A stretch of 34,350 nucleotides of DNA from Oscillospiraceae bacterium (GTDB lineage: Bacteria; Bacillota; Clostridia; Oscillospirales; Ruminococcaceae): NCBI GenBank assembly GCA_017536625.1, contig JAFXGY010000047.1, positions 1 to 34,350 of the forward strand, read 5' to 3'. Below are positions 12,496 through 34,350 of the stretch, in pieces (the first letter of the stretch is position 1; the number at the start of each line of letters is the position of its first letter). The translations under genes were made by a program, and so were the position numbers. The notes under the pieces are model-generated. The model was not told the DNA's origin, made no database searches, and worked only from the letters and a program-made list of their open reading frames with translations.

Positions 12496-12521
12496 CGGAT
12501 ATAAAAATTTTATAATTAATG

Positions 12522-12579: not shown

Positions 12580-12593
12580 GGGGAGGATCCGGC

Positions 12594-13883: not shown

Positions 13884-13894
13884 GGTGATTTTTG

Positions 13895-16729: not shown

Positions 16730-17347
16730 TTAATATTTCTGGCGGCATTCAACAACCTTGCCGAAGATGCGCACGGGGATATTTTCGATTTCGGATTTGC
16801 TGTAAAAAAGCGGTTCGAAATCCGGATTGAACGGACGAAGAAGGATTCCGTCCTTCTGGAACTGGACTTTTTTGACGGTGGCTTCATCTCCATCAACCAT
16901 TACTACGGCGACTTCGCCGTTTTCGATGGTATCCTGCTTGCGGACTATAACAACGTCACCTTCCCACATTCTCGGTTCCATGCTTCTTCCTTTTATCTGA
17001 AGGGCGACGTAATCTCCGGAAAAGGCCATATCGGTTGAAATTTCCTCGTAATCGAGGATATTTTCGACTGCGGTGATGGGGATTCCGGCGGCGACTTTTC
17101 CGAGGACGGGGATTTTTACTCCGACAATGGAATGGCCGGAAATGACGACTTCCTTACCGAGAAGGACGTTCATATTTACGCCGAAATAGGAAGAGATTTT
17201 TTCGAGCTTTTCAAAATCCGGTTCCCTTTCGCCCCTTTCATACATTCCGATGGCGCTGGTTGATAAACCGAGCCTTTTGCCGAGTTCACCCTGGGTGAGT
17301 TCTTTTTCCAGACGGAGGCGGCGGAGAGTTTCGCCGAAATTTGCCAT
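16730..17347 (-). CDS. Phage repressor, LexA/CI-type with S24 self-cleavage domain
   Basis: A 205-residue protein. Residues 1-62 form an XRE helix-turn-helix (TQGELGKRLGLSTSAIGMYERGERE). The C-terminal half is a peptidase S24 domain: cleavage site Ala87-Gly88 in GKVAAGIP, nucleophile Ser122 in GRSMEP, general base Lys159 in ATVKKV. The Ser-Lys spacing of 37 equals that of LexA. Such repressors keep a prophage silent and are inactivated by RecA-stimulated self-cleavage after DNA damage. It is divergent from the structural operon and its promoter is overlapped by an operator, so it should control itself and the rightward promoter. Confidence 0.95.
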   Translation of the reverse strand: MANFGETLRRLRLEKELTQGELGKRLGLSTSAIGMYERGEREPDFEKLEKISSYFGVNMNVLLGKEVVISGHSIVGVKIPVLGKVAAGIPITAVENILDYEEISTDMAFSGDYVALQIKGRSMEPRMWEGDVVIVRKQDTIENGEVAVVMVDGDEATVKKVQFQKDGILLRPFNPDFEPLFYSKSEIENIPVRIFGKVVECRQKY

Positions 17348-17429: not shown

Positions 17430-17491
17430 CACACATAACGTGTTGACTTTCCGCGAAAGCTGTGGTATAGTACGAATCACACGAAATGTGT
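17430..17491 (+). promoter_or_regulatory. Rightward structural-operon promoter flanked by operators O2 and O3
   Basis: TTGACT (17443-17448), 17-bp spacer, TATAGT (17466-17471). Operator O2, ACACATAACGTGT (17431-17443), touches the -35. Operator O3, ACACGAAATGTGT (17479-17491), covers the expected start site. Both have ACAC-N5-GTGT symmetry. Repressor bound here should shut off the terminase and structural genes. Confidence 0.75.
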
Positions 17492-17595: not shown

Positions 17596-17655
17596 AAATA
17601 TTCGTCGGGGAGTGATGCTATGAAAAAAGATACTTAGAAAAACGAGGTGGGGAAA

Positions 17656-18087
17656 ATGGAGCTTTCGGGCAAAGCGGAAAAATTTTGTCGGGAATATATA
17701 GTCGATTTCAATATCCAAAGGGCAGAACAGCGTTCCGGCTGTTCGGAAGGATACGGAAGAAAACTTCTTAAAGATGAAAGGGTTGCCGAAAGAATCTGTA
17801 AGCTTCAGGAGGAATTTATTGAAAAGAACCGATATAACGACAGAAACAGGGTCATTGCCGAAATTTGGAATATGTACGAAAAAGCCATGCAGGCAAAGCC
17901 GGTTGAAATCTGGGATAAGGAACTAAAGGAATATGTTCCCACCGGGGAATATCAGTTCGATGACAAAATCGCCATGAAATGCCTTGAACTCATCATAAAG
18001 CTGGGCGGGAATCCTTCGGAAAAGGAAGGAGAAAAAAGCGAAGGAATCGAAATTATAGTGAAGGTGGAAGATGAAAACGGAACTTAA
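17656..18087 (+). CDS. Phage terminase small subunit
   Basis: A 143-residue protein from ATG 17656, six bases after GAGGTG (an in-frame GTG nine bases earlier lies inside this Shine-Dalgarno). The start LSGKAEKFCREYIVDFN and the helix-turn-helix-like RSGCSEGYGRKLLKDERVAERI match the terminase small subunit family that begins with LTxKQxxFVxEYL. It recognises the packaging site and recruits the large subunit. It overlaps the large subunit gene by 17 bases. It is the first gene of the rightward transcript, directly next to the repressor region. Confidence 0.85.
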   Translation: MELSGKAEKFCREYIVDFNIQRAEQRSGCSEGYGRKLLKDERVAERICKLQEEFIEKNRYNDRNRVIAEIWNMYEKAMQAKPVEIWDKELKEYVPTGEYQFDDKIAMKCLELIIKLGGNPSEKEGEKSEGIEIIVKVEDENGT

Positions 18088-19405
18088 ACTTTTCAGAAAA
18101 CAGATGGAATTTGTGAAATCCACCGGAAAAGCCGACGAAGTACTTTATGGAGGAGCTGCCGGCGGCGGAAAAAGCTTTGGGCAGCTTTGCGACGCGCTTA
18201 TCTATGCGGCGGAATATCCCGGTAGCAAGCAGCTTATTTTGCGAAGGACCCTGCCGGAGCTTGAAAAAAGCCTTATCAGGGTTTCGCTCGAACTTTTCCC
18301 CCGGGAAATTTATAAATACAGCGAATCGAAGCACACCGGAATTTTTTCCAACGGTTCGGTGATAGACTTCGGATACTGCGACAGCGAACAGGACGTTTAT
18401 CGCTATCAGTCCGCGGAATATGACGTCATACGCTTTGATGAGCTGACCCACTTTACGGAGCAGATGTACCTTTATCTTATGTCAAGGCTAAGGGGAGTTA
18501 CGGATTTTCCCAGAGCTATGAAGAGTTCCACAAACCCCGGAGGAATCGGCCACAGCTGGGTGAAGGGAAGATTCATTGATATCGGAAGCCCCGGGGAAAT
18601 CCATAAAATTAAAGGAAGCAGAAGGCTTTTTATTCCGGCAACGGTTTTTGAAAACGGCGCCCTTATGAAGAATGACCCGGATTATGTAAAAAGGCTTCGT
18701 AATCTTTCGGAAAAGGACAGAAGACAGCTTCTTAAAGGGGATTGGGACGTGAACGAAGGGCAGTATTTTTCCGAATGGAGAAGGGAAATCCACGTTATGC
18801 GCCCGTTTGATATTCCGAAAAGCTGGAGAAGGTATTTTGCCATGGACTATGGCCTTGATATGTTGGCGGGATATTGGATTGCGGTGGATCCGTTTGAAAA
18901 CGCGTATGTTTATCGGGAGGTTTATCAGAGCGGACTTATCATCAGCGAAGCGGCAAAGGCGATTTTGGAAGCACAGGGAAGCGACGTTCCGGAAATTTAT
19001 ATTGCGCCGCCGGATATGTGGAACAGAAGGCAGGATACGGGAAAAAGCGTTGCGGAGCTTTTCTTCGAGCAGGGAATTACCCTTTTTAAAGCGAGCAACG
19101 ACAGAATTCAGGGCTGGTACAGCCTTAAGGAATGGCTTCACCCGAGGAAAGATGAATTCGGCGAAACGAAGCCGAGGCTTAGGATTTTTGAAAACTGCAC
19201 CGAAATTATAAGGACCCTTCCGGCACTTTGCTTTGACAGGAACAACCCGAACGACGTTGGAAACCAGGTGCATGAATATACCCACGGGGCGGACGCTCTT
19301 CGTTATTGGGCGGCGGCAAGACCCATGGCGCAGGAACTTGTCTTTGACCCGGAAGAGGAAACTTTTGAGGAAGAAATTGAAAATTTTATGGGGTTTGAAG
19401 GATAA
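18071..19405 (+). CDS. Phage terminase large subunit
   Basis: A 444-residue DNA-packaging motor. The ATPase half has Walker A GGAAGGGKS (residues 27-35), Walker B VIRFDE (119-124) and a coupling motif MKSSTNPGG. The nuclease half starts with the RNase H-like FAMDYGLD and ends with HGADALRYW. The length is normal and no frameshift was seen. It cuts concatemeric DNA and pumps it into the prohead through the portal. The portal gene is not next to it but about 8 kb downstream, which is unusual. Confidence 0.95.
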   Translation: MKTELKLFRKQMEFVKSTGKADEVLYGGAAGGGKSFGQLCDALIYAAEYPGSKQLILRRTLPELEKSLIRVSLELFPREIYKYSESKHTGIFSNGSVIDFGYCDSEQDVYRYQSAEYDVIRFDELTHFTEQMYLYLMSRLRGVTDFPRAMKSSTNPGGIGHSWVKGRFIDIGSPGEIHKIKGSRRLFIPATVFENGALMKNDPDYVKRLRNLSEKDRRQLLKGDWDVNEGQYFSEWRREIHVMRPFDIPKSWRRYFAMDYGLDMLAGYWIAVDPFENAYVYREVYQSGLIISEAAKAILEAQGSDVPEIYIAPPDMWNRRQDTGKSVAELFFEQGITLFKASNDRIQGWYSLKEWLHPRKDEFGETKPRLRIFENCTEIIRTLPALCFDRNNPNDVGNQVHEYTHGADALRYWAAARPMAQELVFDPEEETFEEEIENFMGFEG

Positions 19406-19470: not shown

Positions 19471-20340
19471 TTGAAAAAAGAGATTGAAAAGGAAATTCTT
19501 GCGGAACTTTTGGGTGAAACAAAAGAAGAACCAGCCAAAAACGAGGAAATGAATTTTTTCGGCGAAGGGGAGCTTGAAAGAGAAGAGGAAGCTGAGCACG
19601 AACTTTGCTTCGGAAGTTCCGCAGAGGAATTTGAGCACGGGGATTATGATTTTTCCGGGCACGGAATAAATTTTTCCCTGCCGAAGAAGGCGGCGGAAGA
19701 AATTGCTGCTGCCACCGGAAAGAAACCGGAAGAAATCATCGGGATTTTTGAAAAGGGATGCCGCTTTGAAAAAGTTTTGAAAGAACTTGAAGAAGCAAAA
19801 AGGGATTCGGAAGTTTTTGAAAAACTTGCCGCCATGAGGGGGATTTCCAAAGAAGAAATGAGGGCGGAAATCTTCGGCGCCCTTGAAAAGGCAAAACTCG
19901 GTGCCATCATCGAAAAACTTTTGGCGGAAAACCCGGGAATGAACGAGGAAACCGCCGGCGAACTTGCGAAATTCCGCCTTGAAGCGGAAAAACCGAAAAC
20001 CGCAAAAGAAGAAAAAGAAAACAGAATCGAAAAAATCCTCGATATGCTTAGGGAGATGGAAGATTTTTCTGCAAAGCACAGGGGCGAAGGCATTGAAAGC
20101 CTTGATAACAGCATCATCGAGGAATGGGAAAAGGGAAGCACCCTTGAAAGGGCGTTCGAAAACGCCCGTTTTGCGAAGGAAAAAGAAAAGCTCCTTGCGG
20201 AAATGGAGCAGATGAAGCTTGAAAAAGAAAAGCTTGAAAGAAAGGATTATCTGAGAAAACACAGCCCCGGAAGCGCAACTTCCGCTTCCGGAAATACGGT
20301 CATCGATGCTTTTATCGAAGGACTTTTTAAAGAATATTAA
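19471..20340 (+). CDS. Probable scaffold-like head assembly protein
   Basis: A 289-residue acidic, strongly helical protein starting at TTG 19471 after AAAGGAG. Long heptad-rich Glu/Lys segments (about 85-180 and 215-268) predict coiled coil. The N-terminus is very acidic and the C-terminus ends in a short basic-hydrophobic tail (DYLRKHSPGSATS...IEGLFKEY). Position directly before the major capsid gene, composition and lack of enzymatic motifs suit a scaffolding protein. No maturation protease is recognisable. The family is not identified from sequence alone. Confidence 0.65.
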   Translation: MKKEIEKEILAELLGETKEEPAKNEEMNFFGEGELEREEEAEHELCFGSSAEEFEHGDYDFSGHGINFSLPKKAAEEIAAATGKKPEEIIGIFEKGCRFEKVLKELEEAKRDSEVFEKLAAMRGISKEEMRAEIFGALEKAKLGAIIEKLLAENPGMNEETAGELAKFRLEAEKPKTAKEEKENRIEKILDMLREMEDFSAKHRGEGIESLDNSIIEEWEKGSTLERAFENARFAKEKEKLLAEMEQMKLEKEKLERKDYLRKHSPGSATSASGNTVIDAFIEGLFKEY

Positions 20341-20350
20341 TGAAAAATTT

Positions 20351-20430: not shown

Positions 20431-20455
20431 TAAAAAGAAAGGAGAAATATAAATT

Positions 20456-21535
20456 ATGGCAATTAATCTTGCAAGCAAATATGCAAAAGAACTCGCGCAG
20501 GCATTCAGTCAGAAATCCGTCGTTGACGGTGTTGCCTGCAAAGACTATGAATTCACCGGTGTTAAAAACCTTAAGGTTTACACCGCAATTTCCCAGCCGC
20601 TTAATGATTATAAGCGTAGCGGCAACAACCGTTACGGCGAACCCCAGGAAGCACAGGATACCGTGCAGGATATGGTGGTCGAAAAAGACCGTTCTTTTTC
20701 CATCACCGTGGATAAAGGCAATAATTCCGAACAGATGGGAACAAAGGAAGCTTCCAAAATCCTCAATATTGAAATGAGCGAACAGGCGATTCCCGAGATG
20801 GACAGATATGCTCTTCGCAAATTCATTGATTACGCAGGCACCCTTGAAGAAGCGGCGGAGGAACCTTCCGAAGAAAATATTGTAAAAATGATTTCCGACG
20901 GAATGGTAAAAATGGGCAACAAAAAAGTTCCCCCGGAAGGAAGATATATCTTCATCGGCTGGAGCCTTTTCGGTATGCTCCGACTTTCCAAACAGTTCAT
21001 CGGGGTGGAAGCTCTTGCAAAAGAGGCGCTTGTTAAAGGCGCTGTTGGCACTTTTATGGGTGCCCAGGTTGTGACTGTTCCGGACGATTATCTTATGAAA
21101 GGCGAAAACAGGGCATATTTTCTTATCGTTTACAGAAACTCCGTGCTCCAGCCCAAAAAGGTGCAGGATTATTTCATCAAGGAAAACCCCGCAGGCATCA
21201 ATGGCGCACTTATTGAAGGCAGATTTATTTATGACGCATTCGTAATCGGCGCAAAATGCGACGGCGTTTATGCGGTTGTTGAAAAAGGAACCGTTCAGCC
21301 TGCACCGACCTTCAGCCTCAGCGGAAGCGACCTTTCCGTAACTTCTTCCGGTGCGAATAAAATCAGAATCACCACCGACGGCACCGACCCCCGTTTCAGC
21401 GATTCCGCATTCGAAACCACCAGCGGCGGAAAAATTTCTCTTCCCGCGGGAAAAATTATTGCGAAGGCGGTTGCCTTTGACGAGGAACTTTTCACCTCTT
21501 CCGTTGCGGAAGATATTGAAAGAACCATTGCCTGA
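20456..21535 (+). CDS. Major capsid protein with C-terminal Ig/chitobiase-like domain
   Basis: A 359-residue protein. Residues 1-280 resemble the major capsid proteins of Firmicutes phages: MAINLASKYAKELAQAF, then GVKNLKVYTA, the LNDYKRSGNNRYGEP motif, and SFSITVDKGN. The C-terminal part (about 280-359) reads as a separate strand-rich domain: PTFSLSGSDLSVTS, IRITTDGTDPRFS and IIAKAVAF recall the chitobiase/beta-hexosaminidase C-terminal (CHB_HEX_C_1) or Ig-like domains that decorate surfaces. Such a domain would be displayed on the outside of the head and might bind glycans or mucin. GAAAGGAGAA precedes the ATG. Base use is host-like. Confidence 0.85.
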   Translation: MAINLASKYAKELAQAFSQKSVVDGVACKDYEFTGVKNLKVYTAISQPLNDYKRSGNNRYGEPQEAQDTVQDMVVEKDRSFSITVDKGNNSEQMGTKEASKILNIEMSEQAIPEMDRYALRKFIDYAGTLEEAAEEPSEENIVKMISDGMVKMGNKKVPPEGRYIFIGWSLFGMLRLSKQFIGVEALAKEALVKGAVGTFMGAQVVTVPDDYLMKGENRAYFLIVYRNSVLQPKKVQDYFIKENPAGINGALIEGRFIYDAFVIGAKCDGVYAVVEKGTVQPAPTFSLSGSDLSVTSSGANKIRITTDGTDPRFSDSAFETTSGGKISLPAGKIIAKAVAFDEELFTSSVAEDIERTIA

Positions 21536-21548
21536 TAATGGCAGAAAA

Positions 21549-21581
21549 AATATTCCGGGCGTATAATTCGCCCGGAATATT
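21549..21581. terminator. Strong hairpin after the capsid gene
   Basis: Perfect 13-bp arms AATATTCCGGGCG / CGCCCGGAATATT with a 7-base loop. On the plus strand no T run follows, so it is more likely an mRNA-stabilising or processing hairpin that keeps capsid mRNA abundant. On the minus strand it is followed by TTTTTT and could stop antisense transcription. Confidence 0.5.
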
Positions 21582-21601
21582 ACGGAAAGGAGAGAAAAAA
21601 C

Positions 21602-22171
21602 TTGGCAGAAAGCAATAAAAAAAGAAAACCCGGTCAAAATCAGGGCAATTGGGAAGTTGTTACGGTGGGTGGAGAAAACCCCACCTATTCCGTACCGGAA
21701 GGGAATACTTCCATAAACGGAGCTGTCACCGTTCCGGAAAACCCGGAACCAAAGCCCACGCCGGAAGAAAATGCGCAGACCGCCATTGATGAACTGCGAA
21801 GCAGATATATGGCAGAGCTTCGGGAAGAATTTGAACGAGCAATGAATCTCCTAAGGGGAGAAAGGGACGAGGCTCTTCGGGAAAACTGGATTTTGCAGCA
21901 GCAGGCAAAGGCTGTTCTTCCGGAACAGCTTGCGGCGGCGGGAATAAACGGCGGCGCGGCGGAAACAACCCTTGCGGAGCTTTCCGCCGGATATCAGGGA
22001 GAGCGAAACGACATTAATTCCGGATATTTTGAAGAGCTGGGAGAACTTTCCGCAAAGCAAAGCGAAAAGAAAGCCGATGCGGAAAAGGATTATATGGAAA
22101 AATGGATCGAATATCTTATGAATATTGCAAAGGCGGAAAAGGAACATGAACTTGAAAAGAAATATGGTTAA
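21602..22171 (+). CDS. Small virion-associated helical protein, unknown function
   Basis: A 189-residue protein starting at TTG 21602 after GGAAAGGAGAG. The N-terminal 60 residues are Pro/Asn-rich and probably disordered. Residues about 65-189 are coiled-coil helices with the segment RDEALRENWILQQQAKAVLP and AAAGINGGAAETTLAEL, a pattern I associate with small genes near capsid genes in gut Firmicutes phages. No enzymatic motif is visible. It may be a head-completion or internal protein. It is followed by another host-type repeat and the tail hub gene. Confidence 0.6.
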   Translation: MAESNKKRKPGQNQGNWEVVTVGGENPTYSVPEGNTSINGAVTVPENPEPKPTPEENAQTAIDELRSRYMAELREEFERAMNLLRGERDEALRENWILQQQAKAVLPEQLAAAGINGGAAETTLAELSAGYQGERNDINSGYFEELGELSAKQSEKKADAEKDYMEKWIEYLMNIAKAEKEHELEKKYG

Positions 22172-22231
22172 AAGCAGATTGATGGAATCCCCCCGCCGCT
22201 TCGCGGCCCTCCCCCCTTTGACAAGGGGGGT
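22169..22231 (-). repeat. Variable-hairpin repeat inside the phage operon, copy 6
   Basis: Between the helical protein gene and the tail-hub gene. Layout: AAAAGCAGATT, GGAATCCCCC, hairpin GCCGC ttc GCGGC (22195-22207), palindrome CCCCCCTTTGACAAGGGGGG, then the Shine-Dalgarno of the next gene. Confidence 0.7.
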
Positions 22232-22248
22232 GAAAGGAGAGTGATTAA

Positions 22249-24291: not shown

Positions 24292-24300
24292 GGTGGAAAA

Positions 24301-25065
24301 ATGGAACTCAGAAAAATTGAAGAAAGCGACCTTGCGGGAAAAGGAGTTCGGGGACAGGCGGATGTTCCGGGGCTTTCCGCAGAGGAAATGCAGGGAAAAA
24401 TCGAGGAAATCGCAAGATTCGCCATCGAAAAGATAAACGAAATCATCGAATATCTTGCCCAAAACGGGGCGAGCAAGGAAGATTTGCAGAACCTTCTTAT
24501 CAAAGCGGGCTCGGTTTCTTCCGTGTTCGGAAGAGCCGGCGACGTTAAAGCAAAGAAGGGCGATTACAACGCGGAAATGGTTGGCGCCGCGAAGGAAAAG
24601 CACGGCGAACAGCATTGGGCAAATGGAACGGACCCCATCACCCCGGAGGATATCGGCGCGGCGAAGGCTGAACATACCCACGGAAGCATCAGTTCCGACG
24701 GAAAAATCGGAAGCGCAAACGGAATGCTGCTTGTAACGGGGCTTGGCGGAAAAATTGAAGCGCAGGCAAAGGAAAATATCGGTTTTCTTCTTCCGCCGGC
24801 GGTGAAAAGCATAAACGGCGCTTTTACTGCTGAAGATAACGTCATTTATCAGGGAAGCGGCATCGGCGATTTTATCTTTTCCTGCGACGAAGAAAAGAAA
24901 GCTTCCTGCCACGGCTGGGTGACCTTCGGAACACCGGGGAACATCAGCATGAGCGGATTCGACTTCATCGAAGACCCGGAAGATATCGCTTCCGCCGAAG
25001 AAGGAAGCAGATGGGAATTCGACCTTGAGCAGGGGTGCCTTATCGTCAGAAAAAGGAGTGAATGA
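24301..25065 (+). CDS. Tail fibre-like protein
   Basis: A 254-residue protein preceded by GTGAGGTGG. The N-terminus carries a helical segment (MQGKIEEIARFAIEKINEIIEYL). The middle has the tail-fibre words SSVFGRAGDVKAKKGDYNAEMVGA, HGEQHWANGTDPITPEDIGA and EHTHG, common in phage receptor-binding fibres and carrying His residues that often bind metal along the fibre. The C-terminus is a beta-rich tip. It overlaps the collagen-like fibre gene by ATGA or ends just before it. Confidence 0.75.
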   Translation: MELRKIEESDLAGKGVRGQADVPGLSAEEMQGKIEEIARFAIEKINEIIEYLAQNGASKEDLQNLLIKAGSVSSVFGRAGDVKAKKGDYNAEMVGAAKEKHGEQHWANGTDPITPEDIGAAKAEHTHGSISSDGKIGSANGMLLVTGLGGKIEAQAKENIGFLLPPAVKSINGAFTAEDNVIYQGSGIGDFIFSCDEEKKASCHGWVTFGTPGNISMSGFDFIEDPEDIASAEEGSRWEFDLEQGCLIVRKRSE

Positions 25066-27511: not shown

Positions 27512-27736
27512 ATGGCAGAAATTTTTGAAAATATAATCATGGTTCTGCTTGCGTTCGGAGCGGGTTTTCTTCTATCCGAAAACAAAAGGCAAAAGGAGGA
27601 GACAAAAACTTTACCTCCGGAAGAGGCCAGGGTGGATTTTGTGGAGGAAAAAAGCAAAACTCCAAGCCTTATGCGTCAGATGATAAATATAATGAATTAT
27701 AACGGAGAGGAGCAGAGAGAGGAAAATTATGATTAA
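27512..27736 (+). CDS. Small membrane-anchored protein next to portal
   Basis: A 74-residue protein from ATG 27512 after GAGGTGAG. One transmembrane segment (ENIIMVLLAFGAGFLLSE), then a charged tail. The end overlaps the portal gene by eight bases. The pattern fits small phage membrane proteins found between tail and head genes. A holin-like function is possible but not shown. Confidence 0.6.
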   Translation: MAEIFENIIMVLLAFGAGFLLSENKRQKEETKTLPPEEARVDFVEEKSKTPSLMRQMINIMNYNGEEQREENYD

Positions 27737-29270
27737 AAAAGAAAACATCACGCCAAAGGCGGTTTGGGAGGAATATCTTGAAGGGGAAAATTATCACAGA
27801 AGCATAAATCTTCATGAAACGGTGAAAAGAAACGAAAAGTTTTATAACGGCGAACAGTGGGAAGGAGTGAACGCTCCGGACCTTGAAAAACCGGTAATCA
27901 ATATTTTCAGGCGCGCGGTTACATATCTTGAAAGCCAGATAATCAGCGATGACGTGGGAGTTTCCATCGAAGCCCTGGGGGAAAACCATGAAAACGATAT
28001 CCTCGGAAGGCAGATCGAACGCATCATCGAAAAAACCAAGGCAAAAAGCAAGAACAGAGAACTTATCAAGGACGCGGCCATTACCGGTGACGGAGCTTTT
28101 TATGCCTGGTTCGACCCGGAAAAAGGAAAATCCGGCGAAATTGAGCTGGAGCTTCTGGATAATGAAAAAGTGATTTTCAAAAACCCCTTCGAAAAAGATA
28201 TCCAGAAGCAGAAAAGCATAATCCTCGTAAAAAGAATGATGCTTGATGAAGTGAAGGAACTGGCGGAGGAAAACGGAGTTTTGGCGGAGGAGGTTTCGAT
28301 GATTCAGCCGGATGATTCCGGCGATTACGCCGGAGAAAACAAAGATGCGGGCAAAAGGCTTGTTACCGTTCTTCTGCGCTTTTGGAAAGATGATGGAAAT
28401 ATCTGGTTTTCGGAAAGCACAAGGGAGGTTTTCATCAGAAAACCCATAAGAACAAAGGCAAAGCTTTATCACGTTGCGTGGATGAACTGGGATTCGGTTA
28501 AGGACAGCTATCACGGCGCTTCCGCCATGAAGCCTTATATTCCAAACCAGATTTACGTCAACAAAATGTGGGCAATGGCAATGGTCTTCAGCAGCAAAAT
28601 GGCTTGGCCACAGCGTTTTTATGACGCCACAAAAATCCGCGGCGGACTTTCGAACAAAGTCGGACAGGCCATCGGCGTTGCGGGAGATCCGAAATCCGCG
28701 GTTTATTTTGATGCGCCGGCGGGCAATATGAGCGCGCAGGTGCTTGAGCTTGTTGACAGAACCATCAGATACACAAGAGAAAGCCTTGGGGTAACGGACG
28801 CCGCCCTTGGCGAAGTGAAGCCGGAAAACACTTCCGCAATCGTTGCGGCATCGGAACAGACCGCGGCGCCGCTTATCTTCCAGAAGCAGGCGAACCACCA
28901 GCTTTGGGAGGACCTTGTGAACATCTTCATTGATATTATCAGAGAGATGTACGGAAAAAGGGAAATTACCTTTTTTAAAAAAGACGAGCACGGAAACAAA
29001 TTTTTGAGCACCGAAGAATTCGACTTTGATAAAATCGATTACGACGGACTCGATATCAAAATAAATATCGGTGCGGCGACTTATTGGAGCCAGCTTATGC
29101 AGGTGCAGACCATGGACGCTTTCTTTAAAAACGGAATTATTGACGACGCGGTTCTTTATCTTGAGCACCTTCCCGAAGGATATGTTTCCGGCAAAGAGGA
29201 GATCATCCGGGCGATTAAAGAGAGAAAAGAGGCTTTGAGCACGCAAAACCAGCCCATGATGCAGCAGTGA
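27729..29270 (+). CDS. Phage portal protein (podovirus type)
   Basis: A 513-residue portal subunit. Typical features: N-terminal KFYNGEQWEG and PVINIFRRAVTYLESQI, central YHGASAMKPYIPNQIYVNKMWAM, then LGVTDAALGEVKPENTSAI with the conserved N-T-S-A that precedes the channel-lining helix, and LIFQKQANHQLWEDL. Portals form the dodecameric DNA gate at one head vertex. The gene lies after the tail fibres rather than between terminase and capsid. AGAGAGGAA precedes the start. Confidence 0.85.
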   Translation: MIKKENITPKAVWEEYLEGENYHRSINLHETVKRNEKFYNGEQWEGVNAPDLEKPVINIFRRAVTYLESQIISDDVGVSIEALGENHENDILGRQIERIIEKTKAKSKNRELIKDAAITGDGAFYAWFDPEKGKSGEIELELLDNEKVIFKNPFEKDIQKQKSIILVKRMMLDEVKELAEENGVLAEEVSMIQPDDSGDYAGENKDAGKRLVTVLLRFWKDDGNIWFSESTREVFIRKPIRTKAKLYHVAWMNWDSVKDSYHGASAMKPYIPNQIYVNKMWAMAMVFSSKMAWPQRFYDATKIRGGLSNKVGQAIGVAGDPKSAVYFDAPAGNMSAQVLELVDRTIRYTRESLGVTDAALGEVKPENTSAIVAASEQTAAPLIFQKQANHQLWEDLVNIFIDIIREMYGKREITFFKKDEHGNKFLSTEEFDFDKIDYDGLDIKINIGAATYWSQLMQVQTMDAFFKNGIIDDAVLYLEHLPEGYVSGKEEIIRAIKERKEALSTQNQPMMQQ

Positions 29271-29293: not shown

Positions 29294-29674
29294 ATGAAAG
29301 TCAGGGAATGTTATGAGGCAGCGCTGAGCTTTCTTCCCGAAACGGTGGAAGATAACCCGGAAATGCAGAAATTTATGACCGCATGGTGCAACGTGCTTTT
29401 GGGAGAGATGCTCGGGCACGAAAACACCTTTCGCAGAGCGAACAAATCGGAGGAACTGAAAGTTCCTCCGGTGCTCACGGAAGGAGAGGAGGAGATTCCA
29501 TATAACGAAAGGCTTGTTCGGAGCGCCTTTCCTTACGGAATGGCAAGATGGATGTTCCGCGAAAACGAAGATATTGCCGCCAGCCATGAATATTACGGCC
29601 TTTATATTACCGCCGCAAACGAAGCAACACCCATTATTGAAGGGGAGGTGAGAGATGTTTATGAATTATGTTAA
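29294..29674 (+). CDS. Head-tail connector/adaptor-like protein
   Basis: A 126-residue helical protein with a GGAGGTG Shine-Dalgarno, immediately after portal and overlapping the next gene by 20 bases. Content (ALSFLPETVEDNPEMQKF, AWCNVLLGEMLGHENTFRR, ARWMFRENEDIAASHEYYGLYITA) and position fit an adaptor that binds portal, as P22 gp4-like or gp15/gp6-like connectors do; sequence alone does not prove it. Its opening segment has two degraded copies downstream (32145-32207 and 33562-33624), showing that this region has been duplicated. Confidence 0.6.
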   Translation: MKVRECYEAALSFLPETVEDNPEMQKFMTAWCNVLLGEMLGHENTFRRANKSEELKVPPVLTEGEEEIPYNERLVRSAFPYGMARWMFRENEDIAASHEYYGLYITAANEATPIIEGEVRDVYELC

Positions 29675-31502
29675 GCCGAACAAAGGGAAAAGCATTGAGG
29701 AAAGGCGAGCGGAGGTCATTGCGGATAATCAGGAGCTTTGGGGAACGCAAACAGGTTCGGGAGTGAGCACGGGAGCAAGTTCCGGAGCAAGCACCGGCAC
29801 AAACACAGGAACGGATGATGATTATCGATATTATCATGGGGCCTATAACGGAAAAATGAACAAAATGCCGGATATAAACGCAAAAAAACCGGCGGAAAGA
29901 CCGGAAGAATCCTGGTTCAGAGATGAGGATTTTTTGCCGAGGGACGATGATTATAAAGACGAGGCTTGGGAGAAAGCATTCATAGAAGCGTTTCTTGAAG
30001 AAAGCGGAGTGAAAACGCCCCGAAGCAAAAAAGCCGATGCACTTAACGGTGTTCCCGCCGCAAAACCGAGCGTGGAGGATTTTTTCAATCATTACGGAAA
30101 GCCATCTTTCAGCTTTGACGATATCATTGAGGATTACCGGAAAAGCAACGCGGCTTTGCTTGGCGGAAACAAATTCCCGAGCCAGGAGATGATTTTGCAA
30201 AAAGAGAATGATTTGCCGGGATACAGACCGGGAAGCACCCCCGGAGGTTACCTGAATCCTGCTGCGGATCCGAGGGGGATTGCGGAAAAATATTATATTC
30301 TGGAAGATTATTACGGAAAACCCGGAAAGAATGCTTTTGAAAACGCGATGAAAGGAATGTTCAACAGATTCCGTTCAGCCCCCGGCGAGGCGATAGAAGA
30401 TCTTGCGTTTCTTATAAAAGATTTTGCACCATGGTATAAACCGGCGCAGAACGTTGTTGAGAAAAATACGGCTGGAACTATCGGTAACACCGCAACGGGG
30501 CAGTTCGGACTTGCTAAAGATGAAACCGGATATTTCGGCGACAGGCTTATTGATGCGGCGGATGCAGGTTCTGCTATGCTTGGTCATGCTATGATATTCG
30601 GACCGTCGCATCTTGCACTAAGCCAAAGCGTTGGCGGAGGACTTGACGAATATCGCTATCAGAGGGAAAGCGGAGCAGATAAATCTGAAGCGCTTGTAAG
30701 AGGAGCAGGAACAGGCTTGGTTTCTTACGGAATAGAGCGTCTTGGAGGATTAGGCGCAGATAATTCAGCTTTGCCCAAAATAAATCTGAAAGATACTTTA
30801 TCAATGATTAGAACGGTAACAAAAACAGCGCTGCAGGAAGGCGGAGAAGAAGCTGCGGAATATACAGCAAATTCGCTTATGAATTCTTTGGCGGATGCAA
30901 TTTACAAAGGTAAGATTTCTGTTGATTGGGATGTCGAAGACGCTTTTAACAGTGCTGTTAGCGGGGCGTTGGTTGGCGGAGGTTTGTCGGCAGTACCGAC
31001 GGTCAATGGCAGAGATATTGACATCGTTGATGAAATGAATAAAATAGTAAGTGAAAAAACAGATGTTGATACAAAAATTGAAAATGCGCAAAAGTTGAAA
31101 GATTCTTTAGGATGGCGTAAAAAAGCAGAAAAAGAAGTGGACAAACTATTATGGTATCTTGGAAAGCAAGACTATAGAGGCGTGGATTATGTAACAAGAA
31201 ATGCCATTGAAAGACCAATTATTGGTGTAAATCATTTTAATAAGTTCGGTCTGCCAAATGATATTGTGCAGGTGGGGAAAAATCCAAAGAGAATAGAAAG
31301 AAATTATTTGGATAGCAACGGAAAATGGTTAAAACAGATAAGTAATAGCGACCACGGAAAACCTAAACATCACCCATATGGCGAGAAAGGTGAGCATACA
31401 CATGATATACATTGGAAAGGTGATGAGTTTGAAAAACTGATGCGTAATATAAGCGATGAAGAGAAAAGGGAGAATTTGGATATTTTATGGATGTTAAAAT
31501 GA
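29655..31502 (+). CDS. Virion carrier protein with C-terminal toxin-like domain
   Basis: A 615-residue protein after GGGGAGGTGAGAG. Residues about 36-55 are a Ser/Thr/Gly linker. Residues about 290-450 show the Gly/Ala-rich carrier pattern seen in phage virion proteins with variable tips: SYGIERLGGLG, EGGEEAAEY, SAVSGALVGGGLSAVPTV. Residues 441-467 are encoded by an 82-bp segment repeated at 33634-33715. After that the DNA turns AT-rich and the last about 148 residues are an unrelated tip with a His cluster (SDHGKPKHHPYGEKGEH, HDIHW) and ending ERR-type EEKRENLDIL, a pattern I associate with polymorphic toxin domains, possibly a nuclease. It overlaps the next gene like a toxin-immunity pair. 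The delivery role is inferred. Confidence 0.7.
   Translation: MFMNYVKPNKGKSIEERRAEVIADNQELWGTQTGSGVSTGASSGASTGTNTGTDDDYRYYHGAYNGKMNKMPDINAKKPAERPEESWFRDEDFLPRDDDYKDEAWEKAFIEAFLEESGVKTPRSKKADALNGVPAAKPSVEDFFNHYGKPSFSFDDIIEDYRKSNAALLGGNKFPSQEMILQKENDLPGYRPGSTPGGYLNPAADPRGIAEKYYILEDYYGKPGKNAFENAMKGMFNRFRSAPGEAIEDLAFLIKDFAPWYKPAQNVVEKNTAGTIGNTATGQFGLAKDETGYFGDRLIDAADAGSAMLGHAMIFGPSHLALSQSVGGGLDEYRYQRESGADKSEALVRGAGTGLVSYGIERLGGLGADNSALPKINLKDTLSMIRTVTKTALQEGGEEAAEYTANSLMNSLADAIYKGKISVDWDVEDAFNSAVSGALVGGGLSAVPTVNGRDIDIVDEMNKIVSEKTDVDTKIENAQKLKDSLGWRKKAEKEVDKLLWYLGKQDYRGVDYVTRNAIERPIIGVNHFNKFGLPNDIVQVGKNPKRIERNYLDSNGKWLKQISNSDHGKPKHHPYGEKGEHTHDIHWKGDEFEKLMRNISDEEKRENLDILWMLK
30975..31056 (+). repeat. 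82-bp direct repeat, copy A (pre-toxin junction)
   Basis: From ggcggagg to gtgaaa, matched at 33634-33715 with 80 of 82 identical bases. In both places it is read in the same frame (GGG[L/F]SAVPTVNGRDIDIVDE...). It marks the boundary between the conserved carrier and the exchangeable tip. Confidence 0.95.
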
Positions 31503-32056
31503 TAAAAACATGGTTAAAAAAAGTTATAGATTCAAAGCAATATCTGAAAAAGAGTATCCAAAGGAGCAAATCAAAAGATTTAAAACATATGGATGCGGAA
31601 GAACTTAAAAGTTGGATAAGTGGATTTGATATATTTTTTCGTTATAAAGAAGTTGATGGATATATTGGTCCCATGTGCGGAGAGGTTATATCTTTGAGAT
31701 ATGGTGGGAAAAGTTATAATGCAAAATCTATTGATGAAGCAATGGAATATCCCTTTTTTGATGGAGAATCTTTAAATAAAATAGCAACACAGTTAGATGA
31801 TTTGAAAATTTTCGACATTAAAGATAGCAGAAGGTTTATAAACGCCGAGATACTAAAAGAAGATATTCAAAGTGAAGATGTTAAATTTGAATATATGGAT
31901 TTTGAAGGGGGAGCTATCTATATATCGTCAAATAAAATTGTAATATGGTACAAAGACGATGAGTATGAAGCAAAATCAATAGATGATGCAATGTCATACC
32001 CGATTTTTGATGGCAAAGCATTAAATGAAATTGCGGGAAAAATAAAAATGGTCTGA
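31487..32056 (+). CDS. Immunity-like protein with tandem duplicated domain
   Basis: A 189-residue protein, start ATG 31487 or ATG 31499 (the latter overlaps the toxin stop as ATGA). It holds two copies of one module. Copy 1 reads FRYKEVDGYIGPMCGE, LRYGGKSYNAKSIDEAM, YPFFDGESLNKIA. Copy 2 reads FEYMDFEGGAIYISSN, WYKDDEYEAKSIDDAM, YPIFDGKALNEIA. The same module starts the gene at 34177. Small acidic proteins directly after toxin domains are typically the cognate immunity proteins; that is the inferred role here. AT-rich, unlike the phage structural genes. Confidence 0.7.
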   Translation: MDVKMIKTWLKKVIDSKQYLKKSIQRSKSKDLKHMDAEELKSWISGFDIFFRYKEVDGYIGPMCGEVISLRYGGKSYNAKSIDEAMEYPFFDGESLNKIATQLDDLKIFDIKDSRRFINAEILKEDIQSEDVKFEYMDFEGGAIYISSNKIVIWYKDDEYEAKSIDDAMSYPIFDGKALNEIAGKIKMV

Positions 32057-32144
32057 CTAAATCAAAAAGTGCTGATGATTGCTTAAAAGGCGAAAAGCAG
32101 GCAATAATGAGTGAATAGACAGTGATTCTATTTTATTAAGTAAT

Positions 32145-32207
32145 AGCACGAAATGTGTTATACGCAAAAACAGGCATTTCCCGATATGAACCTTGAAAAG
32201 TGAATAG
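32145..32207 (+). repeat. 63-bp direct repeat, copy A (degenerate connector start)
   Basis: 60 of 63 bases match 33562-33624 (differences at two bases after aaatgtg and one further on). It includes AGCACGAAATGTG, which resembles the repressor operators CAC-N5-GTG (13-base match to O3 in this copy). Confidence 0.9.
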
Positions 32208-32374
32208 CATGGTGCAATGTGCTTTTTGGGGAGACACTTACTGAAGCAGAAAAGGATGCGGTTTTTAATTTGCCGGAAATGCTCCAAAATGGTGCGGTAG
32301 GAAGCATAATGGGAGGAATATTTGGTACCCCAAAACTGGTCGATGAAATTTTTAAGCTGAAGAAAAGTGATTAA
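32145..32374 (+). pseudogene. Remnant: connector start fused to carrier segment
   Basis: Read with one frameshift and one stop, the stretch gives CYTQKQAFPDMNLEK, stop, then IAWCNVLFGETL, which matches CYEAALSFLPE and TAWCNVLLGEML of the connector at 29294. It then runs on in frame as EKDAVFNLPEMLQNGAVGSIMGG and ends at 32372-32374, resembling the carrier segment EDAFNSAVSGALVGG. So the remnant joins connector and carrier sequence with the middle deleted. 32145-32207 is repeated at 33562-33624. Confidence 0.65.
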
Positions 32375-32460
32375 TGTAATTTGTTAAAGGGAATAAGGAA
32401 GATGGTTTTTTCCCTGCCTTTAATCCAAACTAAATAAACGGAGAGGAATATTCAAAGCTC

Positions 32461-32778
32461 TTGCATTTTAATGAGAAGGCCGCTGAAAAAGAAATTGCAA
32501 AACTCAAAGAAGGACGCTATAATTATGGTGGAACAGCTCAAGCGGTTAAAACGACCGCTTCATCTGCGGCAAGCACAATTATTGATAATCAGTTAATGGG
32601 AGAATTGAGCAGACATAAAAAATTGACTGAAAAGTATATTGCAATGGGATATTCCCAGGCTGAAGCGCAACATCTTGCTTTGAACAGTATGGGCAGAGGG
32701 CTTTTGCAGGAAATAATTTCCGAAATAATGGGAGAAAAACTTGCAATAGGGAGAAATGATGATGAGGGGGCGCAATAA
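32461..32778 (+). CDS. Truncated carrier or toxin-associated protein (start uncertain)
   Basis: A 105-residue frame opened by TTG 32461 (GGAGAGG is 13 bases upstream, too far). The same frame continues upstream as INGEEYSKLL to a TAA at 32431 and beyond it as NKEDGFFPAFNPN, so this is probably the 3' part of a longer gene broken by a stop. Segments TAQAVKTTASSAASTIIDNQ and YIAMGYSQAEAQHLALNSMGRG are helical, reminiscent of carrier regions. Its stop overlaps the next ATG by one base, as in a toxin-immunity pair. Function unknown. Confidence 0.5.
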   Translation: MHFNEKAAEKEIAKLKEGRYNYGGTAQAVKTTASSAASTIIDNQLMGELSRHKKLTEKYIAMGYSQAEAQHLALNSMGRGLLQEIISEIMGEKLAIGRNDDEGAQ

Positions 32779-33524
32779 TGGTACCTTTCAGGAGATGGTT
32801 ATACAGCGATTTATCATATCTTGAACTTAATATTTTATATCACAGCAAAGACTGGGACAGATATAAATACTACATGAGTTACAGGAAAAGCGAAGAAATA
32901 GATTTATCCATAGATTTTTATACATACAGAGATAAATATGATGAAATATCGGAAGAACTTATCGGTTTTGCGGCAAGTGCCGGAGAAATCAAAGGTCAGG
33001 CGCCTACTTTTATAAATGGAATCTTTGGATATAAAGGTATTGAGAACAGCGGAGTTGAAATCGATAGTGTAAAAAAAGCGCTGGAAAAGGAACCCCAAAA
33101 AGCAGGTTTCAGTCTGAACTACACTTTGAATGAAAAATGTCTTGTTTCAATGGATTGCCAATCGCTGAGGATTAAAGATGTTAAACCGCTTCTGGATGGA
33201 TATATTCCGATAGTGATAACAGATGAACAGAAAAAGTTTCTTAGTAAGCGCATAAAAAATCTTGATGAGATTCTTTGCAGAAATAATGCAAACGAGCTTT
33301 TGATGGAAATATTTTATCTTTACAATTCAAAGGGATTTCCAAGAAACAGTATTCGTGAGGACATTATGTTTTGGCAGGAATGGTTTGCGCTTACAAAATA
33401 TGATAAAGTTGCAAATGATATGATGCTTAATTCGGGAAGATGGACCGGTGAAAGACGCAGCCGTTTCGGCAGAAAGCTGAACAGAATTTATTACGAAATT
33501 TTTGATCAGAGCAGAAAAGGATAA
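32778..33524 (+). CDS. Unknown AT-rich cassette protein; shares C-terminal domain with 33869 gene
   Basis: A 248-residue soluble protein with GAGGGGG before the ATG. I do not recognise the first 165 residues (SYLELNILYHSKDWDRYK..., KGIENSGVEIDSVKKALEKE). The last about 85 residues (NNANELLMEIFYLYNSKGFP ... RFGRKLNRIYYEIFDQSRKG) parallel the 71-residue protein at 33869, whose end is WFGRKMKRLCREIIQQNRKE. The two genes are followed by almost identical terminators. It is probably an immunity protein or an immunity fused to another module. Confidence 0.6.
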   Translation: MVPFRRWLYSDLSYLELNILYHSKDWDRYKYYMSYRKSEEIDLSIDFYTYRDKYDEISEELIGFAASAGEIKGQAPTFINGIFGYKGIENSGVEIDSVKKALEKEPQKAGFSLNYTLNEKCLVSMDCQSLRIKDVKPLLDGYIPIVITDEQKKFLSKRIKNLDEILCRNNANELLMEIFYLYNSKGFPRNSIREDIMFWQEWFALTKYDKVANDMMLNSGRWTGERRSRFGRKLNRIYYEIFDQSRKG

Positions 33525-33550
33525 GGCGCACCAGCCTGCGCCTTTTTCTT
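33523..33550 (+). terminator. Cassette terminator 1
   Basis: Stem AAGGCGCA / TGCGCCTT, loop ccagcc, T-rich tail. Matches the terminator at 34084-34111 in stem and position relative to the coding end. Confidence 0.85.
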
Positions 33551-33561
33551 TGGAATGTAGC

Positions 33562-33624
33562 AGCACGAAATGTGCCATACACAAAAACAGGCATTTCCCG
33601 ATATGAACCTTGAAAAGTGAATAG
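33562..33624 (+). repeat. 63-bp direct repeat, copy B
   Basis: Second copy of 32145-32207. Here the connector-start remnant is joined directly (with a TAG at 33622-33624) to carrier sequence GGGFSAVPTV, so the deletion end point differs from that of copy A. Confidence 0.9.
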
Positions 33625-33855
33625 GAAATATTCGGCGGAGGTTTTTCAGCAGTACCGACGGTCAATGGCAGAGATATTGACATCGTTGATGAAATGAATA
33701 AAATAGTAAGTGAAATAAGCGACGTTCAAAAAGCATTGCAAACAAAACCAATAAAAATGGGCCAGAATTTATGTTATGTTCTTGATGGGGTTTGTGAAGT
33801 TTATATTAATCCTCTTTCGGGAGAACTGATTGGGGTTTTATCATTAATGCGCTGA
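33625..33855 (+). pseudogene. Orphan toxin-tip cassette
   Basis: An open frame of 76 codons without its own carrier start. Residues 4-30 are the duplicated carrier junction (82-bp repeat, 33634-33715). The rest is a different tip: SDVQKALQTKPIKMGQNL, CYVLDGVCEVYINPLSGELI, end at TGA 33855. It lacks a proper start (an internal ATG at 33694 would give 53 residues, no Shine-Dalgarno). By homologous recombination through the repeat it could replace the tip of the 29655 gene, as orphan CT modules do in CdiA and Rhs loci. Confidence 0.65.
33634..33715 (+). repeat. 82-bp direct repeat, copy B
   Basis: Second copy of 30975-31056, with two substitutions near the start (G to T and G to A). Reading frame preserved. 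Confidence 0.95.
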
Positions 33856-33868
33856 AAGGAGAATAGAG

Positions 33869-34084
33869 TTGATAATATACGACAATCAAAAAAATATATT
33901 GAAACTGTTTATAAGAAATGTTGATAATTTTATTGAAGAAGATAATATTAATGGACTACTGCATGAACTTTACGCTGTATGTATGACGTGGGGGTATAAT
34001 AATAGTAGAGGAAGACTTAACTGGTTCGGAAGAAAGATGAAGAGATTATGTAGGGAAATTATTCAGCAGAACAGAAAAGAATAA
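33869..34084 (+). CDS. Small immunity-like protein, cognate of orphan tip
   Basis: A 71-residue protein starting at TTG 33869, seven bases after AGGAG. It follows the orphan tip at 13 bases. NINGLLHELYAVCMTWGYN and WFGRKMKRLCREIIQQNRKE match the C-terminal domain of the 32778 product. The composition is helical and basic at the end. Its role as immunity protein is inferred from position and from the paralogy; no family is recognised. Confidence 0.65.
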   Translation: MIIYDNQKNILKLFIRNVDNFIEEDNINGLLHELYAVCMTWGYNNSRGRLNWFGRKMKRLCREIIQQNRKE

Positions 34085-34111
34085 AAAAGGCGCACCGGCC
34101 TGCGCCTTTTT
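34084..34111 (+). terminator. Cassette terminator 2
   Basis: Stem AAAAAGGCGCA / TGCGCCTTTTT, loop ccggcc. The DNA upstream (coding end) and the terminator are both similar to 33461-33550, so this end was duplicated as a unit. Confidence 0.88.
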
Positions 34112-34138
34112 CTTCCCGCACACGGTAAGGTTCGTAGA

Positions 34139-34180
34139 ATGAATATAAAAGAAATACTCGAAAATGAGGGATGGATATGA
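34139..34180 (+). other. Short frame overlapping the next immunity-like gene
   Basis: ATG 34139 opens a 13-codon frame (MNIKEILENEGWI) whose TGA at 34178-34180 overlaps the ATG of the next gene (ATGA). It may be the very end of a lost toxin tip that left only its coupling to the immunity gene. Too short to call a gene with confidence. Confidence 0.35.
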
Positions 34181-34350
34181 AAGTAAATGAATTGAGAAAA
34201 CTCATAGACGACTGTTTTACGCCAATATATTTTCAATATAAAGGTGAATGGGGAAACATAGAACCTTGTTGTAATAGGAAAACAGGATATACTTTCGACT
34301 GTTATTATGGCGGTGTGGATCAAAGGGTTTATAACATTGATGATGCGATG
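34177..34350 (+). CDS. Immunity-like protein, partial (runs off the window)
   Basis: 58 codons are visible from ATG 34177. The product MKVNELRKLIDDCFTPIYFQ, then YKGEWGNIEPCC, FDCYYGGVDQRVYNIDDAM carries the same module as each half of the 31487 product (FRYKEVDGYIGPMCGE ... YNAKSIDEAM). It is thus a single-module or multi-module paralogue of the first immunity-like gene. The cassette array therefore continues to the right of the window. Confidence 0.7.
   Translation, partial: MKVNELRKLIDDCFTPIYFQYKGEWGNIEPCCNRKTGYTFDCYYGGVDQRVYNIDDAM

What the first reader, a model, noticed from the sequence alone, without database searches (positions are those of the whole stretch)
30975..34350. Phage-borne polymorphic toxin cassette array
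A carrier gene in a podovirus-like operon ends in a toxin-like tip with a coupled immunity-like gene. It is followed by at least three further units made of junction sequence, alternative tip or broken carrier, and small immunity-like gene. The set-up is like orphan CT/immunity arrays of CdiA and Rhs systems, but the carrier is a virion-type protein beside the portal and connector. It may be a tip-switching effector system delivered with, or protecting against, phage particles.
Basis: partly seen in the sequence, partly recalled or inferred. Interest (0 to 1): 0.85.

Follow-up and report, generated by a model that had tools for sequence, protein, structure and literature searches.

The report
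Domesticated phage with swappable toxin cassettes
A gut bacterium and nearly all the sequenced relatives in its genus keep, apparently at the same place in the chromosome, a stripped-down short-tailed phage that may have become a toxin-delivery device, with one loaded toxin-immunity pair and a row of spare or broken toxin and immunity modules behind it.

Summary
A 615-aa carrier (29655-31502) ends in an intact toxin-like tip whose immunity gene overlaps it; three further units follow, joined by 93- and 68-nt repeats. The tip is a known module: 38 viral contigs carry it, and 10 of 10 carriers tested there are MuF-type head proteins. This carrier is not MuF.

The window is chromosome plus a ~19-kb element with repressor, terminase, capsid, P22/Page-type portal, carrier/array and lysis genes, and no integrase found. 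It occurs in 14 of 15 genus genomes, each with at least one matching host flank. Structural genes are under purifying selection (dN/dS 0.10-0.20) and the portal diverges with the host. An operator-like palindrome marks the repressor promoter and the arrays and nothing else (48 of 48 copies). Related second copies carry a 2,283-2,888-aa protein in the carrier's place.

Best reading: a domesticated podovirus-like particle that delivers a polymorphic toxin on an ejection-type protein, with CdiA/Rhs-like orphan arrays. Particles, toxicity and delivery are untested.

The parts
16730..17347 (-). S24/HTH (CI-like) repressor gene, left end of the element
   Evidence: PF00717 8.1e-29 and PF01381 4e-16; phrog_4 transcriptional repressor
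17432..17490 (+). promoter-like TTGACT-17-TATAGT (17443-17471) with palindrome 17480-17490 and a near-copy 17432-17442
   Evidence: promoter and operator roles inferred
17647..18087 (+). terminase small subunit
   Evidence: PF03592 1e-10, phrog_51
18071..19405 (+). terminase large subunit
   Evidence: PF03237, PF04466, phrog_979
19471..20340 (+). scaffold-like protein (assigned by position only)
   Evidence: no PHROG hit; conserved in relatives
20456..21535 (+). major capsid protein
   Evidence: phrog_422 8.7e-41; phage hits
22249..24291 (+). virion structural protein (phrog_3287), homologous to one of podovirus Page
25062..26312 (+). collagen-like tail fibre
27729..29270 (+). portal protein, P22/Page type
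   Evidence: PF16510 over its cut-off; Bacillus phage Page portal 27.9% over 93%
29294..29674 (+). connector-like small protein (by position)
   Evidence: conserved in relatives; no family over a cut-off
29655..31502 (+). carrier protein, 615 aa: variable N-terminus (1-208), core (about 209-460, incl. Gly-rich stretch), toxin-like tip (about 506-615)
30975..31067 (+). junction repeat D1, first copy (codons 441-471)
31487..32056 (+). immunity gene 1: two copies of one immunity domain in tandem (about 35-107 and 118-189)
32140..32207 (.). cassette-boundary repeat D2, first copy, with palindrome 32147-32157
32219..32778 (+). carrier-like fragments 32219-32374 and 32461-32778 (broken carrier by look; no homologue found)
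32778..33524 (+). unit 2: toxin-like and immunity-like parts in one ORF
33557..33624 (.). cassette-boundary repeat D2, second copy, with palindrome 33564-33574
33634..33726 (+). junction repeat D1, second copy
33694..33855 (+). unit 3: truncated tip in frame with D1
33869..34084 (+). unit 3 immunity-like gene
   Evidence: 52% to a G002 gene that also follows such a tip
34171..34350 (+). unit 4: orphan immunity gene of the same family as immunity 1, completed on contig C14, where the lysis genes follow

Best explanation
The locus is the payload end of a domesticated, integrase-less prophage of the short-tailed (podovirus-like) type, kept at one chromosomal site in this Oscillospiraceae genus. 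The S24 repressor holds the late promoter off; repressors of this family are normally inactivated by the SOS response (recalled). On induction the cell makes and releases short-tailed particles. The carrier is the head-internal, ejected protein of the ancestral phage, cut down and fused to a toxin tip, and it enters a target cell with the particle's ejection. Kin survive through the overlapping immunity gene. Spare and degenerate tip/immunity units behind the carrier arise by recombination at repeated junctions. They serve as a stock for switching tips and as extra immunity. Repressor sites at unit boundaries and before the lysis genes insulate the array or regulate it. Shown: anatomy, gene identities, shared flanks, purifying selection, tip exchange, repeats, palindrome distribution. 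Inferred: particle formation, ejection of the carrier, toxicity, neutralisation, repressor binding.
For: Portal at 71% identity or more in 14 of 15 genus genomes. Of those 14, matching left flank in 8, right flank in 12, both on one contig in 5. No PF00589 or PF07508 hit inside the element in 9 of 9 genomes searched. Median dN/dS: terL 0.10, capsid 0.10, portal 0.13, p22249 0.19, connector 0.20. Portal distances follow prfC distances, Mantel r 0.515, p 0.003, n 13. Same core with different tips, and same tip on different bodies: G014/G001 tip 72%, G008/G013 tip 69%. Repeated segments in 8 of 8 arrays, none in 160 letter shuffles. Ten tip positions are identical in all 17 tips aligned, this one included. 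The next gene is an immunity relative in 21 of 37 viral loci, plus the annotated Streptococcus phage case. 48 of 48 operator-like palindromes lie in repressor-terminase regions (17) or arrays (31); 1.3 expected by composition in all DNA scanned. Carrier versus giant protein of second copies: hhalign probability 88, E 3e-6.
Against: Neither the carrier nor its tip matches Pfam or NCBIfam. Only a weak profile match links the carrier to the giant protein. The relatives that bear names are metagenome-assembled genomes. Right ends of G000, G005, G008, G009, G012 and G013 lie on a contig other than the portal's. No element amidase was found in G002 or G003, whose contigs end in the array or carrier. 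With the midpoint root at G011, the second-copy portals nest inside the fixed-site group (99/98), so a single domestication is not shown; that root rests on a very long branch. The window's own spare units look degenerate, so tip switching is not shown in this genome. G004 keeps the element without carrier or array. Intact terminase genes also fit DNA transfer.
Confidence: 0.57

Rival explanations
1. It is an ordinary temperate phage with a MuF-like polymorphic toxin, used at infection to steer lysogeny or harm competitors; the missing integrase is an assembly or annotation gap.
For: The same tip and immunity occur in Streptococcus and other phages on MuF-type proteins. Related second copies exist in the genus, one with a serine recombinase, and their portals nest among fixed-site portals if the tree is rooted at G011.
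Against: Repressor lies about 0.4 kb from terminase, and lysis genes abut host genes, in the five genomes with both flanks on one contig. Matching host flanks in 14 of 15 genomes. No integrase hit inside in 9 of 9.
Confidence: 0.13
2. It is a gene-transfer-agent-like element: particles carry host DNA between kin, and the toxin enforces kin-only exchange or is a passenger.
For: Terminase genes intact and under selection; shared site; no integrase; G004 keeps the element without the toxin array.
Against: A carrier gene follows the connector in 13 of 14 elements, and tips are exchanged among them. DNA content of particles is unknown.
Confidence: 0.16
3. A decaying prophage remnant that has become a landing site for toxin-immunity genes; toxins act inside the cell as addiction or abortive-infection modules and no particle is made.
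For: Broken tips and carriers in the window; array AT-rich (35% GC against 46% in the structural genes), as for imported DNA; no element amidase found in G002 and G003.
Against: Structural ORFs intact with low dN/dS. Amidase found in 12 of 14 element-bearing genomes, in G012 only in parts. The carrier body, not just the tip, is kept.
Confidence: 0.1
4. The array is an artefact of metagenome assembly around repeats.
For: The contig breaks in the array, and the named relatives are MAGs.
Against: Eight arrays from eight genomes show repeated segments with different tips. In G001, G006, G007 and G010 one contig runs from portal through array and lysis genes into host DNA. The window's break is closed by an exact 135-base overlap.
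Confidence: 0.03

Closest known systems
MuF polymorphic toxins of temperate phages (Jamet 2017, PMC5576092, passages; Zhang 2012, PMC3482391, passages; Bxa, PMC11699363, abstract, one section and passages)
   Same: Head-region phage gene with variable C-terminal toxin tip and overlapping immunity gene; the tip and immunity families found here occur on MuF/min_cap2 proteins. Zhang 2012 already noted MuF toxins in prophage remnants.
   Different: Carrier has no MuF or min_cap2 match and lies at the ejection-protein end of a podovirus-like operon. The element is fixed in the genus without an integrase. It carries orphan arrays with repeated junctions; 'orphan' and 'recombination' do not occur in the held text of Jamet 2017.
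CdiA/Rhs orphan CT-immunity arrays (PMC3150448, passages)
   Same: Main carrier gene followed by tip/immunity modules headed by repeated carrier sequence.
   Different: Delivery module is phage structural genes; no VENN motif in five carriers checked; operator-like palindromes at unit boundaries.
Domesticated prophages: gene transfer agents (PMC8987985, passages), PBSX (recalled)
   Same: Shared chromosomal site, structural plus lysis genes, no integrase found, purifying selection.
   Different: Short-tailed type with P22/Page-like portal, and a polymorphic toxin payload with orphan array.
Tailocins and contractile injection systems (PMC12090994, search listing; general knowledge)
   Same: Phage-derived particles used against other bacteria.
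   Different: Here the head, portal and terminase are kept, and no sheath, tube or tape-measure family is among the hits shown.
Pagevirus podoviruses of Bacillus (NC_022764)
   Same: Portal and one virion protein homologous; a very large gene, Page_20 (19786-24825), follows the tail genes.
   Different: Free phages; the carrier found no match among phage records except by its tip, in Streptococcus phages.

Membership tests
MuF polymorphic toxins | N-terminal MuF / Phage_min_cap2 domain | tested here: not met
   0 Pfam and 0 NCBIfam families for the 615-aa carrier at E up to 1; 10 of 10 viral carriers of the same tip tested do match
MuF polymorphic toxins | C-terminal toxin module plus adjacent immunity gene of the same families | tested here: met
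Polymorphic toxin systems (general) | constant delivery region with exchangeable C-terminal tips | tested here: met
Polymorphic toxin systems (general) | tip toxic, cognate immunity protein protects | not testable with these tools
   needs expression; conserved positions present
CdiA/Rhs-type orphan arrays | displaced tips preceded by a repeat of the carrier junction, each with an immunity gene | tested here: met
   repeated segments in 8 of 8 arrays, copies of the first carrier's interior in 7 (G002's are boundary, N-terminal or tip-immunity repeats), none in 160 letter shuffles; window unit 3 truncated
Domesticated prophage / GTA-like | same chromosomal site in many species, no integrase | tested here: met
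   some right ends on separate contigs
Domesticated prophage / GTA-like | structural genes under purifying selection and diverging with the host | tested here: met
   (Nei-Gojobori; dS high, so approximate; single origin not shown)
Gene transfer agent | particles package random host DNA | not testable with these tools
   terminase genes intact; no particle data
Podovirus-type particle | podovirus portal and no long-tail genes | tested here: met
   PF16510 over cut-off, Page portal annotated 'podovirus-type'; no tape measure, tube or sheath family among the hits shown (25 of 55 fibre hits shown)
Ejection (internal virion) protein | protein inside the head, ejected into the target | tested here: inconclusive
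   position only, plus a weak profile match to the giant protein of second copies

The most novel reading that the evidence does not exclude
A whole-head, short-tailed counterpart to tailocins: a genus-wide domesticated podovirus-like particle whose ejected protein was rebuilt into an interchangeable toxin warhead. Spare cassettes are bracketed by the element's own repressor sites, so one SOS-type switch would control particle, payload and lysis while immunity genes are insulated from the lysis genes.
Probability: 0.37. Interest if true: 0.9.

Novelty: new variant of a known kind. Interest (0 to 1): 0.77.

Why it matters
Phage-borne polymorphic toxins have been proposed to be delivered by virions, but the phage carriers in the passages I read are MuF proteins. 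Here the host seems to have kept the particle genes and lost phage mobility, which points to a host benefit. It also makes delivery testable in a simple setting: induce, purify particles, look for the carrier, ask whether kin without the immunity gene die. The 15-genome comparison offers natural controls, including one element without array (G004) and second copies with a giant protein in the carrier's place.

Tried and rejected
Carrier against IMG/VR: no relatives. The core seems confined to this genus: 2 of 247 sampled family genomes, this one and one congener; 9 of 15 in the genus. Immunity gene 1 against INPHARED by tblastn: none, although single-pair comparison and viral-contig genes do match. 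PDB profile searches for tip, portal and giant protein gave nothing meaningful. PADLOC, seven proteins: nothing. p22249 against Page_10: no match; the right partner is Page's later virion protein. Promoter scan of the array: no excess over shuffles (13 against 13.7), so array promoters are not shown. Other tips against phage records: the G002 first-carrier type hit one faecal phage record at 33%; the G012/G006 and G007 types hit none. Carrier-like fragments 32219-32374 and 32461-32778 found no homologue. Unit 3 as an intact spare tip was dropped after alignment showed the front missing. The palindrome motif was chosen after looking at array boundaries, so the array counts are partly post hoc; the repressor-terS hits were not used to define it. 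Literature: ten searches. No toxin-tipped ejection protein with an orphan array in a domesticated podovirus-like element appeared in the listings; only open-licence PMC papers were searched, and the listings of long results were capped.
Full report
WHAT THE WINDOW IS. Bases 1 to about 16,600 are ordinary chromosome (prfC, pyrR-like, a blaI/blaR1-like pair and others; names from reading the ORFs). From 16,730 a phage-derived element begins: a divergent S24/HTH repressor, then terminase small and large subunits, scaffold-like protein, capsid, virion proteins, collagen-like fibre, portal, connector, carrier and array. The contig stops at 34,350. Another contig of the same genome, C14, shares the last 135 bases exactly and continues with the rest of the orphan immunity gene, an XhlA-like protein, holin, amidase and then host genes. 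From the end of the repressor gene to the end of the amidase the element measures about 19.2 kb.

WHO CARRIES IT. Named records for six carrier loci are Oscillospiraceae metagenome-assembled genomes; five of the six titles name sheep, goat, water buffalo or dairy cattle gut. The portal is found at 71% identity or more in 14 of 15 genomes of the genus; the fifteenth, G011, has only a 49% relative. A carrier gene follows the connector in 13 of the 14 (in some cut by a contig end); G004 has none.

SHARED SITE. Left of the repressor, within about 9 kb, 8 of the 14 share host genes: NADH oxidase, thioredoxin, a cysteine-desulfidase-like gene or a permease in G001, G002, G003, G004, G006, G007 and G010; the blaI/blaR set in this genome and G007, where NADH oxidase and permease lie further out. 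Right of the amidase, 12 of the 14 share host genes (UPF0126, sigma factor or M42 peptidase): G000, G001, G004-G010 and G012-G014. Both flanks lie on one contig in G001, G004, G006, G007 and G010. In G000, G005, G008, G009, G012 and G013 the right end is on a contig other than the portal's, so the link is inferred (for G000 by the exact overlap). In G002 and G003 no element amidase was found; their contigs end in the array or carrier. Tyrosine integrase (PF00589) and serine recombinase (PF07508) searches over nine of these genomes found many hits elsewhere, none inside the element. Replication genes were not searched for by profile; none was recognised in the gene lists, where the repressor is followed by terminase. 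A second, different copy in this genome (contig C31) has a serine recombinase. Second copies, where resolved, have a very large protein in the carrier position: 2,888 aa in C31 and 2,283 aa in G005 C201 complete, with contig-cut starts in G012 C28 and G002 C83.

SELECTION AND DESCENT. Terminase large subunit, capsid, portal, p22249 and connector ORFs are full length in the 11 best-covered fixed-site elements, except that terL of G014 is cut by a contig end. Median pairwise dN/dS by Nei-Gojobori is 0.10, 0.10, 0.13, 0.19 and 0.20. Synonymous divergence is high (7 of 55 connector pairs saturated), so these are approximate, and the host gene prfC is more constrained (pN/pS 0.05). Portal protein distances correlate with prfC nucleotide distances (Mantel r 0.515, p 0.003, 13 genomes; G004 left out, its prfC was not found). 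In a portal tree the 14 fixed-site sequences and the 4 second copies fall on two sides of one branch (89/90; 87% of 200 bootstrap trees). But with the midpoint root at G011 the second copies nest inside the fixed-site group (a fork of 11 fixed and 4 second copies has 99/98). G011 sits on a very long branch, so the root is unsure. The tree neither shows nor excludes one domestication followed by vertical descent; prophages arising from, or recombining with, the fixed element are also possible.

THE PARTICLE TYPE. The portal exceeds the Pfam cut-off for P22_portal and matches the portal of Bacillus phage Page, annotated 'podovirus-type', at 28% over 93%. p22249 matches a virion protein of the same phages. 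No tape-measure, tube or sheath family is among the hits shown. In Page a very large gene follows the tail genes, as in the second copies here.

THE CARRIER. Residues about 208-354 are shared with carriers of seven other genus genomes at 34-53%, and a contig-cut one in G013. The Gly-rich part up to about 460 is shared fully only with G002 (61% over residues 226-460). A profile of carriers aligns with the N-terminal part of the giant proteins (hhalign probability 88, E 3e-6, 161 columns, 24% identity), which suggests, weakly, that the carrier is a shortened descendant.

TIPS SWAP. G014's carrier body is 92% identical to G003's, while its tip is 72% identical to that of G001, whose body is of another class; the following small genes are 81% identical. 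G008's body is 71% identical to G010's, while its tip is 69, 67 and 56% identical to those of G013, G006 and G012, whose bodies are of the first class. In G006 an orphan ORF starts with 52 residues identical to the main carrier and, over 146 residues, is 71% identical to the end of G009's main carrier (all). In G010 three orphan ORFs start with the same junction as the main carrier; between the three, the DNA repeats are 94-97% identical over 221-265 nt. Past the junction one of them has a tip of the main carrier's own family (61%), one is at most distantly similar (26%, E 2e-4) and one is unrelated. Repeated segments occur in 8 of 8 arrays tested, and none in 20 letter shuffles of each. In 7 of the 8 they are copies of the first carrier's interior; in G002 they are boundary, N-terminal or whole tip-immunity repeats. 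Arrays are AT-rich: 34-35% GC against 44-47% in the structural genes in the five genomes measured. One tip (G001) is DUF6883 above its cut-off; G005's is a sub-threshold match.

THE WINDOW'S OWN TIP. Residues about 517-612 match the C-terminus of head proteins in nine Streptococcus phage records. The tip is found in 38 IMG/VR contigs and in 11 of 391 sampled genomes of the class, this one included. Ten of ten viral carriers tested, out of 37 with an ORF, are Phage_Mu_F or Phage_min_cap2 proteins. The immediately following gene is a relative of the window's immunity genes in 21 of those 37. In the other 16, all Streptococcus-type, my script picked a different ORF, but the annotated overlapping gene of phage IPP40 matches (36% over 58 residues). 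Ten positions, including an HxH pair, are identical in all 17 tips aligned, this one among them. No fold or solved relative was found, so the enzyme class is unknown. Immunity gene 1 is two immunity domains in tandem, and unit 4 is a third member, so this cell would hold three immunity domains of one family.

THE OTHER UNITS. Unit 2 is a toxin-like and an immunity-like part in one ORF, as in G002, G013 and G014. Unit 3 joins the D1 junction in frame to the rear part of a tip whose front is missing. A D2 boundary repeat lies ahead of each. The reservoir in this genome is therefore partly decayed; orphan CdiA modules also vary in how much of the carrier they keep (PMC3150448, passages read).

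A SHARED OPERATOR-LIKE SITE. The palindrome CACRAAAYGTG occurs 48 times in 673 kb of fetched DNA, against 1.3 expected by composition. 17 copies are in the repressor-terminase intergenic regions (9 of 10 resolved regions have one or more; G001 has only near-matches) and 31 in arrays, including sites just before the lysis genes. None lies elsewhere in the element or in 447 kb outside it, contig C31 with the second copy included. In the window one copy lies at 17480, just after the -10 of a TTGACT-17-TATAGT promoter-like sequence, and a near-copy adjoins the -35. In G004, which has no carrier or array, no copy precedes the lysis genes. The array boundary element also includes conserved sequence after the palindrome. 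I read the palindrome as the repressor's operator. At the array it may block read-through into the lysis genes from immunity-gene transcription, or it may control array promoters; neither is shown, and the promoter scan found no excess. Sites in related arrays are not independent, and the motif was picked from the array boundaries.

VERDICT. The finding is confirmed and larger than described: probably not a phage with an odd toxin, but a host-kept, short-tailed phage remnant under selection with an exchangeable toxin payload. Polymorphic toxins on phage head proteins, orphan arrays and domesticated prophages are each known. The combination, the non-MuF carrier at the ejection-protein position, and the operator-tagged arrays are new as far as the searches named in Tried and rejected go. 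Hence: new variant of a known kind, with high interest because delivery can be tested directly.

Noticed in passing
G004 C47, 24895-26581 (locus L117): The element here has no carrier and no array: connector is followed directly by the lysis genes. A natural payload-free version.
   Followed up: partly
G000 C31, 84096-118755 (L088-L090): Second, related prophage-like copy in the same genome with serine recombinase, a HicA/HicB-like pair (by reading) and a 2,888-aa protein with an HExxH motif in the carrier position. Its terL ORF starts late (95142) although tblastn aligns from 94749, so it may be interrupted.
   Followed up: partly
arrays of G001, G002, G007, G009, G010, G013, G014: Many orphan units begin with a GC-rich, near-perfect inverted repeat that equals the codons for an AAEKSAA-like motif of carrier N-termini; it may be a recombination point.
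   Followed up: no
L094:18087-18872 (G010 orphan tip): Sub-threshold match (E 0.03, 14.5 bits against a cut-off of 27.4) to Pfam ATLF; probably not meaningful.
   Followed up: no
window 34216-34350 and G000 C14 end: The two contigs overlap by 135 identical bases inside an orphan immunity gene, the point where the assembly broke.
   Followed up: yes
window 9260-16461: BlaI/BlaR1-like pair and lipoprotein-like genes (by reading) next to the element, shared in part with G007 and, further out, G003.
   Followed up: no
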